From Candidatus Peribacteraceae bacterium (GTDB taxonomy: Bacteria; Patescibacteriota; Gracilibacteria; Peribacterales; Peribacteraceae): a stretch of 46,618 nucleotides of DNA. This document shows, in pieces, positions 13,944-36,389 of the stretch. The notes beneath the pieces were generated by a model. The model had not been told where the DNA came from, did no database searches, and saw nothing but the letters and a program-made list of their open reading frames with translations. Every line of letters begins with the position of its first letter. Position 1 is the stretch's first letter. Location of the stretch: NCBI GenBank assembly GCA_028699155.1, contig JAQVVD010000009.1, positions 1-46,618 on the forward strand, in the 5' to 3' direction. The translations under genes and the position numbers were made by a program.

Positions 13944-14020
13944 GGGCCAGTAGCTCAGTTGGTTAGAGCCCCGGACTTATAAACCGGCGGTCGGTGGTTC
14001 AAGTCCACCCTGGCCCACCA
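13944..14020 (+). tRNA. tRNA-Ile (UAU anticodon)
   Basis: A 77-nt cloverleaf: acceptor GGGCCAG/CTGGCCC, D-arm GCTC/GAGC, T-arm GGTGG TTCAAGT CCACC, encoded CCA. The anticodon loop CTTATAA gives UAU (13978-13980), which reads AUA directly. Most bacteria use a CAU anticodon modified to lysidine by TilS for this codon. The 31:39 pair is A-A, so the anticodon stem has four good pairs. A TAAAAT box at 13930-13935 is the likely -10. Confidence 0.88.
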
Positions 14021-14090: not shown

Positions 14091-14111
14091 CAAGTCCACC
14101 CTGGCCCACCA
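14091..14111 (+). repeat. Second copy of the tRNA-Ile 3' tail
   Basis: These 21 bases are identical to the last 21 bases of tRNA-Ile (14000-14020), 91 bases further on. The copy covers part of the T-loop, the 3' T-stem strand, the 3' acceptor strand and CCA. It marks the junction between two palindromic elements, as expected if elements insert at the tRNA end and regenerate it. Confidence 0.85.
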
Positions 14112-23879: not shown

Positions 23880-23992
23880 GCCTCCGCGGTGGAATGGTAG
23901 ACACATCCACCTTCCGAAGTTCTTAATTTCTGAGGGTTTCGGAAGTGGATGGCTTCACGACCGTGCGAGTTCGATTCTCGTCGGAGGCACCA
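23880..23992 (+). tRNA. tRNA-Leu-like gene with extended anticodon arm (anticodon unassigned)
   Basis: A 113-nt tRNA-like gene. The acceptor GCCTCCG/CGGAGGC, a Leu-type D-arm (GTGGAATGGTAGACAC), a long variable arm, the T-loop TTCGATT and the encoded CCA are intact. The anticodon stem TCCAC/GTGGA is not closed by a 7-nt loop. After a bulged C it continues as TTCCGAA/TTCGGAA and ends in a 19-nt loop, which adds about 27 nt. Possible anticodons inside that loop are UAA (CTTAATT) or GAG (CTGAGGG), but neither is properly framed. It may be intron-bearing, degenerate or a tRNA mimic. TATAAT at 23868-23873 places the transcription start at its first base, suggesting active expression. Confidence 0.6.
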
Positions 23993-28857: not shown

Positions 28858-28933
28858 GGCCCGGTAGCTCAGTTGGTAGAGCACTCGCCTGAAGAGCGAG
28901 GTGTCGCCAGTTCGATCCTGGCCTGGGCCACCA
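28858..28933 (+). tRNA. tRNA-Phe (GAA)
   Basis: A 76-nt cloverleaf: acceptor GGCCCGG/CTGGGCC, anticodon stem CTCGC/GCGAG with loop CTGAAGA (GAA), T-arm GCCAG TTCGATC CTGGC, encoded CCA. An extended -10-like TGCTACAGT lies just upstream. Two tandem palindromic elements follow. Confidence 0.96.
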
Positions 28934-29084
28934 TCCGTCTTCGCTGCGCTACGCCGTGATGGTTTGATCCCAAGGCACGGCGAAGCCGAAGGCATAGACG
29001 GCCTGGCCTGGGCCACCATCCGTCTTCGCTGCGCTACGCCGTGATGGTTTGATTCCAAGGCACGGCGAAGCCGAAGGCATAGAC
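28917..29084 (+). repeat. Tandem tRNA-Phe tail plus palindromic element, two copies
   Basis: Each unit is 17 bases of tRNA-Phe 3' end followed by a 66-base element (28917-28999 and 29002-29084, period 85). The two are identical except for one C/T. The element starts with the type I blocks (ACCATCCGTCTTCG ... TACGCCGTGATGGT) and has a second inverted segment, CACGGCGAAGCCGAAGGCAT then AGAC, complementary to its start. The first tail belongs to the real tRNA; the second is a copy. Confidence 0.85.
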
Positions 29085-35322: not shown

Positions 35323-35484
35323 AAAGTGCGTAGGAATGAAGTAATGATACAATGATACTTTGCAATAAAATATTTATAGAGTCAATTATCTTCTGTGGCA
35401 CTTTCTTGTTCCTGGCTTGCCATGGCTTGCCATGAGGCCGCCGCAGGCGGCCGAATGGTCGAGTACTGGCAGCACAACTCCAAC

Positions 35485-35529
35485 GACCATCGCGGCGTAG
35501 TCAGCCGCGGCTGACGAAGCCGGATGGTC
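35485..35529 (-). repeat. Palindromic element (type I) after the outermost tRNA-Pro tail copy
   Basis: On the minus strand GACCATCCGGCTTCG is mirrored by TACGCCGCGATGGTC around an inner perfect palindrome TCAGCCGCGGCTGA. The outer blocks match the elements after tRNA-Phe and tRNA-Ile. It starts at the CCA of the tRNA-Pro-derived tail at 35525. Further on, GGCCGCC-TGC-GGCGGCC (about 35433-35450) is another hairpin of the same general kind. Confidence 0.7.
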
Positions 35530-35636
35530 GGGGCGGCGCGACTCCGAAACCCGAAGGGTCCCTTTCAGGGCGCGCGACCCCCTGCTCCCAAAGCAGGTAC
35601 TCTAGGCCCGAAGGGCCCTCTTAGAGGCCAACTGAG
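35525..35636 (-). pseudogene. Altered tRNA-Pro copy, unit 1
   Basis: It retains the tRNA-Pro anticodon arm, T-stem, 3' acceptor strand and CCA. The 5' acceptor strand is missing, the D-loop carries about 21 extra bases (with GGGCCCTTCGGGC) and the T-loop about 24 extra (with GGGACCCTTCGGGT). Both inserts are UUCG-capped hairpins. It cannot be a functional tRNA. It encodes the last ~22 residues and the stop codon of the overlapping GIY-YIG gene. Confidence 0.8.
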
Positions 35637-35897
35637 CAAATCTGATTTTACTTTCAGTAGAATTGCATGTTTTTCCAGATAGCCAGCAGGATGTTTTAGA
35701 TGCCATTCGCGTTTCATGGCTTCTTGCCTTGAAGTAACTTCTTCAAAATAAGCCAGTGTTAACGGTCTGTAAGGTTTTGTTGAGCGAACGCGCCCTGCAG
35801 CATGGATTTGTATGCGTTCCTGAAGTTGCAGAGTCGTCTGGCCGATGTACCACCAGTTAGGTTTCTTCTCCGAATGCAAAATATAGACGTATGCCAT
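35565..35897 (-). CDS. Single-domain GIY-YIG nuclease, copy 1
   Basis: A 110-residue protein of the UPF0213-like GIY-YIG nuclease group. The core is MAYVYILHSEKKPNWWYIGQ (VYI and YIG elements, residues 4-19), with Arg28 in QERIQIHAAGR and the metal-site helix RQEAMKREWHLK. Residues ~89-110 (SWPLRGPFGPRVPALG and on) are translated from the altered tRNA-Pro copy, whose T-loop insert supplies the TGA stop. It differs from copy 2 mainly at residue 55 and at 81-88. Such nucleases nick DNA; here homing to tRNA-Pro genes is a reasonable hypothesis. Confidence 0.8.
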   Translation of the reverse strand: MAYVYILHSEKKPNWWYIGQTTLQLQERIQIHAAGRVRSTKPYRPLTLAYFEEVTSRQEAMKREWHLKHPAGYLEKHAILLKVKSDLLSWPLRGPFGPRVPALGAGGRAP

Positions 35898-35918
35898 GGT
35901 TACAGCTGTTTACATTGC

Positions 35919-36032
35919 TGGTCGGGGCGGCGCGACTCCGAAACCCGAAGGGTCCCTTTCAGGGCGCGCGACCCCCTGCTCCCAAAGCAGGTACTCTAGG
36001 CCCGAAGGGCCCTCTTAGAGGCCAACTGATCC
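35919..36032 (-). pseudogene. Altered tRNA-Pro copy, unit 2
   Basis: It has the same structure as the copy at 35525-35636: CCA, acceptor 3' strand, T-stem and anticodon arm conserved, with hairpin inserts in the D- and T-loops and no 5' acceptor strand. The tRNA-derived part ends at GCCAACTGA, after which the sequence becomes GIY-YIG coding and the two units diverge for a few bases. Confidence 0.8.
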
Positions 36033-36291
36033 TATCTGATTTCAATTCCTGCAGAATTGCATGTTTTTCCAGATAGCCAGCAGGATGTTTGAGATGCCAT
36101 TCGCGTTTCATGGCTTCTTGCCTTGAAGATACTTCTTCAAAATAAGCCAGTGTTAACGGCCTGTAAGGTTTGGTTGAGCGCACGCGCCCCGCAGCATGGA
36201 TCTGTATGCGTTCTTGAAGTTGCAGAGTCGTCTGGCCGATGTACCACCAGTTAGGTTTCTTCTCCGAATGCAAAATATAGACGTATGCCAT
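35959..36291 (-). CDS. Single-domain GIY-YIG nuclease, copy 2
   Basis: A 110-residue protein nearly identical to copy 1, with an intact YIG (17-19), Arg28 and RQEAMKREWHLK. It has SSRQ instead of TSRQ at residues 55-58 and QELKSDRIS instead of LKVKSDLLS at 81-89. Both copies keep open frames and their catalytic motifs, so selection has probably kept them active. The ATG follows TGTAAACAGCTGTAACC with no Shine-Dalgarno sequence. Confidence 0.8.
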   Translation of the reverse strand: MAYVYILHSEKKPNWWYIGQTTLQLQERIQIHAAGRVRSTKPYRPLTLAYFEEVSSRQEAMKREWHLKHPAGYLEKHAILQELKSDRISWPLRGPFGPRVPALGAGGRAP

Positions 36292-36312
36292 GGTTACAGC
36301 TGTTTACATTGC

Positions 36313-36389
36313 TGGTCGGGGCGGCGCGACTCGAACGCGCGACCCCCTGCTCCCAAAGCAGGTACTCTAGCCAACTGAGCTACGCCCCG
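36313..36389 (-). tRNA. tRNA-Pro (UGG)
   Basis: A 77-nt cloverleaf on the minus strand: acceptor CGGGGCG/CGCCCCG, D-arm GCTC/GAGT, anticodon stem CCTGC/GCAGG with loop TTTGGGA (UGG), T-arm GCGCG TTCGAGT CGCGC, encoded CCA. It is the only complete copy; two altered copies follow downstream within the GIY-YIG units. Confidence 0.95.

What the first reader, a model, noticed from the sequence alone, without database searches (positions are those of the whole stretch)
35525..36389. Tandem GIY-YIG units built on tRNA-Pro: candidate new tRNA-end homing element
Seen: two adjacent units of exactly 394 bp follow tRNA-Pro. Each encodes a GIY-YIG nuclease with intact motifs and ends in an altered tRNA-Pro copy. 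That copy keeps the anticodon arm, T-stem, 3' acceptor strand and CCA, but has UUCG-capped hairpin inserts in the D- and T-loops. The nuclease C-terminus and stop codon are read from the altered tRNA. Inference: the nuclease may cut tRNA-Pro near the loops. Insertion would supply a new 3' part that restores the tRNA, while the displaced 3' part, made uncuttable by hairpins, becomes the element's tail. I know of no described element with this layout.
Basis: partly seen in the sequence, partly recalled or inferred. Interest (0 to 1): 0.88.

Follow-up and report, generated by a model that had tools for sequence, protein, structure and literature searches.

The report
tRNA-linked GIY-YIG element, hairpinned tRNA halves
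In these ultra-small bacteria, tiny nuclease genes sit against essential tRNA genes, leaving each tRNA intact beside a leftover half-copy studded with hairpins; this looks like a widespread gene-drive-like element that was not found described in a search of open-access papers.

Summary
Two 394-bp units follow tRNA-Pro; each encodes a GIY-YIG nuclease and ends in a 3' tRNA-Pro copy with 22-nt hairpin-pair inserts at tRNA positions 19/20 (D loop) and 54/55 (T loop). The units differ at 17 sites, so this is not an assembly duplicate. It is one case of a general pattern in the window's family (Peregrinibacteria). Of 92 related GIY-YIG loci, 70 have a same-strand tRNA within 500 bp; 2 have one on the opposite strand (chance about 2%). 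There are mirror layouts: tRNA-GIY-3' copy, and 5' copy-GIY-tRNA. In 26 GIY units a displaced copy of the local tRNA was detected; its inserts are nearly always hairpins. GIY-less copies also occur; about a third of tRNAs in two genomes carry a displaced copy or GIY. Relatives sit at tmRNA and inside 16S rRNA. Fifteen relatives have the syntenic tRNA-Pro/priA locus without GIY. Best reading: a free-standing homing-endonuclease element that rebuilds its tRNA target, combining features of phage SegB and fungal mORFs. Mobility is well supported; cutting of tRNA DNA and the hairpins' role are inferred. The restored tRNA is not recoded, so simple self-protection by insertion does not work.

The parts
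36313..36389 (-). intact tRNA-Pro(TGG), the host gene
   Evidence: ARAGORN; Rfam RF00005 64.4 bits
35959..36291 (-). GIY-YIG nuclease ORF, unit 1 (110 aa; stop codon lies in the T-loop insert)
   Evidence: nearest solved relative UPF0213 protein 1zg2, E 3.7e-5
35919..36029 (-). unit 1 tail: displaced 3' copy of tRNA-Pro (from about position 12 to 77, CCA included) with two inserts
36000..36021 (-). unit 1 D-loop insert, pair of 11-nt hairpins
35943..35964 (-). unit 1 T-loop insert, pair of 11-nt hairpins
35565..35897 (-). GIY-YIG nuclease ORF, unit 2
35525..35635 (-). unit 2 tail: displaced 3' copy of tRNA-Pro, identical to the unit 1 tail over positions 20-54 and 58-77 and both inserts
35606..35627 (-). 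unit 2 D-loop insert
35549..35570 (-). unit 2 T-loop insert
14091..14111 (+). GIY-less displaced 3' fragment of tRNA-Ile (positions 57-77) downstream of the intact gene 13944-14020
29002..29018 (+). GIY-less displaced 3' fragment of tRNA-Phe (positions 60-76), part of a tandem hairpin repeat downstream of the intact gene 28858-28933

Best explanation
Each 394-bp unit is a minimal mobile element: a free-standing GIY-YIG endonuclease gene plus a duplicated part of its target gene, tRNA-Pro. Insertion at the tRNA leaves one complete tRNA and pushes the old part outward as a tail. The most likely cycle is: the nuclease breaks a tRNA gene (inferred), repair copies the element from an occupied locus (inferred), and the duplicated tRNA part keeps the host viable (shown as anatomy). 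The rebuilt tRNA stays a possible target, so units pile up next to it (arrays shown). Hairpin pairs in the D, anticodon or T loop of the displaced copy break the conserved loop sequences and cut its homology to the intact tRNA to short stretches (shown). Most likely they stop the tail being cut or used to delete the element by recombination (inferred). The family spreads among tRNA isotypes and also to tmRNA and 16S rRNA genes in Peregrinibacteria and other Patescibacteria.
For: Linkage: 70 of 92 GIY loci have a same-strand tRNA within 500 bp, 2 have an opposite-strand one, expected about 2%. Local-tRNA displaced copies in 26 GIY units, both layouts. Inserts are hairpins: 21 of 24 at or below -0.33 kcal/nt against 4% of background segments. 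Nine paired hairpins of the window's clade keep 97% pairing with 7 of 8 pairs changed on both sides. Empty sites: 15 relatives with syntenic tRNA-Pro/priA and no GIY; identical tRNA-Phe occupied in G044 and without GIY in G013 and G054. Jumps: 41 isotype changes on the GIY tree against 60 when shuffled, so isotype is partly conserved but often changed. dN far below dS in the between-genome pairs tested, including copies at different tRNAs. Arrays in the window, L014, L021, L043. SegB, a GIY-YIG enzyme, cuts inside tRNA genes with motif RAWTSGAAC, whose reverse complement reads as the T-loop sequence (PMC13096335; the T-loop reading is mine).
Against: No cleavage or transposition shown. The intact tRNA is not recoded, so donor and recipient share the supposed target. 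Breakpoints and hairpin positions vary between clades; one clade replaces the anticodon arm and leaves the T loop intact (L011). Only 18 of 60 tRNAs show a displaced copy, and the mismatched control gives 7%. In 22 of 92 loci no same-strand tRNA is in reach, several of them at contig ends. No foreign origin of the restored tRNA part could be seen. Many A-layout loci with a 100-300 bp spacer show no clear displaced copy.
Confidence: 0.7

Rival explanations
1. The hairpins are passive. Displaced tRNA halves are neutral debris that collect dispersed palindromic repeats; only debris whose homology to the tRNA was broken survives recombination, so every surviving half carries a hairpin.
For: CCTGCCTGCCGGCAGGCAGG occurs 3-13 times in 8 of 9 genomes searched and half of the eight sampled copies lie outside tRNA halves. 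Uninterrupted homology left in the hairpinned copies is mostly 36 nt or less.
Against: In the window's clade the insert is always a pair of hairpins of about 11 nt at the same loop positions across Pro, Val and His tRNAs and both layouts, with compensatory changes.
Confidence: 0.3
2. RNA-level role: the hairpinned tail keeps the pseudo-tRNA half from misfolding with, or being processed like, the intact tRNA in a shared transcript.
For: Inserts sit in the D and T loops that build the tRNA elbow; pairing is conserved by compensatory change; long trailer hairpins start at the CCA end.
Against: Halves lacking the acceptor strand cannot become tRNA anyway; 5' and 3' halves are treated alike.
Confidence: 0.2
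3. Integrase-type island remnant: ordinary attachment-site duplication at a tRNA 3' end.
For: 3' tRNA duplication is typical of tRNA integration sites (established knowledge).
Against: The unit is 394 bp with no integrase; mirror 5' duplications are common; the same GIY family lies at tmRNA and inside 16S rRNA.
Confidence: 0.03
4. Assembly artefact or chance similarity.
For: The genome is a 44-contig draft.
Against: The units differ by 4.3%; the same anatomy is found in a single-contig genome (G028) and dozens of independent genomes.
Confidence: 0.01

Closest known systems
SegB, free-standing GIY-YIG homing endonuclease of T-even phages (PMC13096335)
   Same: GIY-YIG, not in an intron, linked to tRNA genes of many isotypes, cuts inside tRNA genes, promotes tandem tRNA-plus-nuclease units
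   Different: Phage, not chromosome; no displaced tRNA halves or hairpins reported in the passages read; the window protein has no PHROG match and is nearest to UPF0213 proteins
Fungal mitochondrial mobile ORFs (mORFs), Allomyces atp6 and Glomus atp6/atp9/cox2/nad3 (PMC3630166)
   Same: Endonuclease ORF inserted with a duplicated end of the target gene that restores it, native end displaced beyond the ORF
   Different: Protein genes in mitochondria; displaced end not described as hairpinned in the passages read; inserted end often foreign; no mirror 5' form noted
GIY-YIG insertions in CPR rRNA genes (PMC11270868)
   Same: Same nuclease superfamily and phylum; not in group I or II introns; relatives here lie inside 16S rRNA
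   Different: That study does not mention tRNA or tmRNA, and judged the GIY-YIG to be outside spread by homing
Double-hairpin elements of fungal mitochondria (recalled from memory; literature hits only)
   Same: Short pairs of hairpins inserted in or near structured RNA genes
   Different: Not tested; no link to displaced tRNA halves known to me

Membership tests
Free-standing GIY-YIG homing endonuclease (SegB-like) | intact GIY-YIG catalytic domain | tested here: met
   PF01541 E 1.7e-12; Y5, Y17, G19, R28, H32, E64 conserved
Free-standing GIY-YIG homing endonuclease (SegB-like) | gene outside introns and inteins, linked to the target | tested here: met
   no intron family in the window; 70/92 loci at tRNA
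Free-standing GIY-YIG homing endonuclease (SegB-like) | cuts the target and biases inheritance | not testable with these tools
   needs biochemistry and crosses
Free-standing GIY-YIG homing endonuclease (SegB-like) | sequence membership of the phage SegB family | tested here: not met
   no PHROG match
mORF-type target-rebuilding element | endonuclease ORF plus duplicated target end that restores the host gene, native part displaced | tested here: met
mORF-type target-rebuilding element | empty alleles in relatives | tested here: met
mORF-type target-rebuilding element | restored part of foreign origin | tested here: inconclusive
   restored and displaced parts are identical in the window and in G044 tRNA-Phe
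Group I or II intron | catalytic RNA in the unit | tested here: not met
   Rfam gathering search finds only tRNAs
tRNA-integrase genomic island | integrase gene between the tRNA repeats | tested here: not met
   394-bp unit holding only the GIY ORF
UPF0213/YhbQ-like small GIY-YIG proteins | sequence similarity to the family | tested here: met
   1zg2 (UPF0213 BH0048) E 3.7e-5; no NCBIfam family

The most novel reading that the evidence does not exclude
A distinct class of bacterial element: target-rebuilding GIY-YIG elements of structured RNA genes, with autonomous (GIY) and non-autonomous (hairpin-only) forms and mirror 5' and 3' layouts, which mark each displaced tRNA half with paired hairpins so that the nuclease ignores it. 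Such elements or their traces flank about a third of tRNA genes in these genomes.
Probability: 0.35. Interest if true: 0.87.

Novelty: new variant of a known kind. Interest (0 to 1): 0.74.

Why it matters
Essential, mostly single-copy tRNA genes of reduced genomes would be the home of a gene-drive-like element only ~300-400 bp long. That gives a testable answer to how a nuclease can parasitise an essential RNA gene without killing the host (rebuild it), explains many small GIY-YIG genes and tRNA fragments in Patescibacteria, and offers nucleases to test that may cut tRNA genes.

Tried and rejected
Integrase island, intron and assembly artefact rejected (see rivals). A single shared cut site: displaced copies begin or end at D arm, anticodon arm or T loop, so none could be fixed. 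A single long hairpin instead of a hairpin pair: covariation favours the pair. Self-protection by recoding of the intact tRNA: tRNA-Phe is identical in occupied and unoccupied congeners. Viral contigs: no relative found. An alignment of 27 proteins was too diverse to scan with. In one search the window's own pair was misread by the script; one search replaces it. One sequence of A1 (from L075) was typed with residue slips; it is used only for the conservation summary. The leader stem was chosen by eye before the covariation count.

Full report
OBSERVATION. On the minus strand, intact tRNA-Pro(TGG) (36389-36313) is followed by two units with a period of exactly 394 bp. Each encodes a 110-aa GIY-YIG protein (PF01541, E 1.7e-12 and 2.6e-12) and ends in a copy of tRNA-Pro that holds positions 20-54 and 58-77 without a mismatch, interrupted by 22-nt inserts at positions 19/20 and 54/55. 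The reading frame runs into the tail and stops inside the T-loop insert. The units differ at 17 positions, all between bases 99 and 283; both ends are identical. This speaks against an assembly duplicate and suggests gene conversion at the ends.

GENERALITY. A search of 96 related genomes with the nuclease gave hits in 66. Among 92 distinct loci fetched, 70 have a same-strand tRNA within 500 bp and 2 have one on the opposite strand; from the tRNA density of a single-contig relative about 2% per strand is expected. Almost all isotypes are used. Fifty loci have the tRNA upstream (layout A) and 20 downstream (layout B). In A the displaced copy is a 3' part beyond the GIY gene; in B it is a 5' part before it, with the intact tRNA after the gene. 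The displaced copy matches the local tRNA. Relatives without a tRNA include two downstream of tmRNA (L069, L135) and two inside 16S rRNA, where the gene is enclosed by a long complementary stem (L032, L079). In a phylum-wide Pfam sample most of the best PF01541 loci are not tRNA-linked (about 8 of 31), so the link belongs to part of the superfamily. The clade is Candidatus Peregrinibacteria, with one relative in Nealsonbacteria.

HAIRPINS. Inserts located by tRNA homology, not by hairpin search, are hairpins in 21 of 24 cases against 4% of background segments. In the window's clade (L001, L005, L006, L007, L008) they are pairs of hairpins of about 11 nt in D, T and anticodon loops. The pair structure is kept in 97% of cells, with both-sided changes at 7 of 8 pairs, while the alternative single hairpin does much worse. 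The anticodon-loop members were delimited partly by eye. In other clades the insert is the palindrome CCTGCCTGCCGGCAGGCAGG, which is dispersed in those genomes and also marks GIY-less displaced copies (L173, L179). In 3' displaced copies that span the T loop the insert falls in that loop in most cases; L011, with its anticodon arm replaced instead, is an exception.

GIY-LESS UNITS. Of 30 tRNAs examined in the window's genome 12 carry a displaced copy or a GIY gene, and in G028 10 of 30; displaced copies alone 18 of 60, against 12 of 180 when tRNAs are compared with flanks of unrelated tRNAs. In the window, tRNA-Ile and tRNA-Phe carry GIY-less 3' fragments.

MOBILITY. Fifteen relatives hold the same tRNA-Pro(TGG)/priA neighbourhood without GIY. 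In three congeneric species tRNA-Phe is identical; one has GIY plus a hairpinned tail and two have no GIY there. tRNA-Ile(gat) has GIY plus a 5' copy in one species, a GIY-less 5' fragment in the second and a GIY-less 3' copy in the third. On the GIY tree isotype changes 41 times (shuffled mean 60, minimum 55), so clades tend to keep an isotype but jump often; the tree has few columns and many unresolved forks. dN is far below dS in the between-genome pairs tested, including copies at different tRNAs.

MECHANISM. Shown: linkage, rebuilt target, displaced hairpinned copies, patchy presence, arrays. Inferred: cutting of tRNA DNA, copying by repair, and the role of hairpins. The nearest experimental support is SegB, a GIY-YIG enzyme that cuts within tRNA genes with motif RAWTSGAAC and drives tandem amplification of tRNA-nuclease units (PMC13096335); the reverse complement GTTCSAWTY reads as the T-loop sequence (my reading). 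The rebuilt tRNA has the same loops as unoccupied relatives, so insertion does not destroy a target that lies within the tRNA. I therefore prefer a model in which the intact tRNA remains a target (hence pile-ups) while hairpins protect the tail from cutting and from recombination with the tRNA.

COMPARISON. The layout logic is that of fungal mORFs, where an endonuclease ORF arrives with a duplicated gene end and the native end is displaced (PMC3630166). CPR rRNA insertions with GIY-YIG outside introns are known (PMC11270868). Eight literature searches found no tRNA version; subscription papers and preprints were not searchable. Novelty: new variant of a known kind, possibly more.

Noticed in passing
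L025, L042, L045, L049, L050, L057, L063, L066 and others, just before the GIY start codon: Many layout-A loci carry a conserved stem-loop (GTGCCCTGTAGT...ACTACGGGGC) before the GIY gene and a hairpin that begins at the tRNA CCA end; 8 of 14 predicted pairs show changes on both sides.
   Followed up: partly
L032 1305-3101; L079 1-1191 and downstream: 16S rRNA genes of two family members contain a GIY-YIG gene enclosed by a long complementary stem, although PMC11270868 reports no insertions in Peregrinibacteria 16S genes.
   Followed up: partly
L069, L135: GIY-YIG genes directly downstream of tmRNA genes.
   Followed up: partly
window 23880-23989: A tRNA-like gene of about 110 nt (RF00005, 37.8 bits) downstream of tRNA-Ala, missed by ARAGORN, with extra sequence about the anticodon arm.
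   Followed up: no
G010, G011, G028, G042, G044, G051, G074, G083: Exact 20-nt palindrome CCTGCCTGCCGGCAGGCAGG dispersed 3-13 times per genome, absent from the window's genome.
   Followed up: partly
L137: tRNA-Gln(ctg) flanked by a GIY-YIG gene on both sides, one of each layout.
   Followed up: no
window 35410-35525: Several palindromes and repeated ATGGTCG/TGGTCG motifs just beyond the second unit, possibly older remnants.
   Followed up: no
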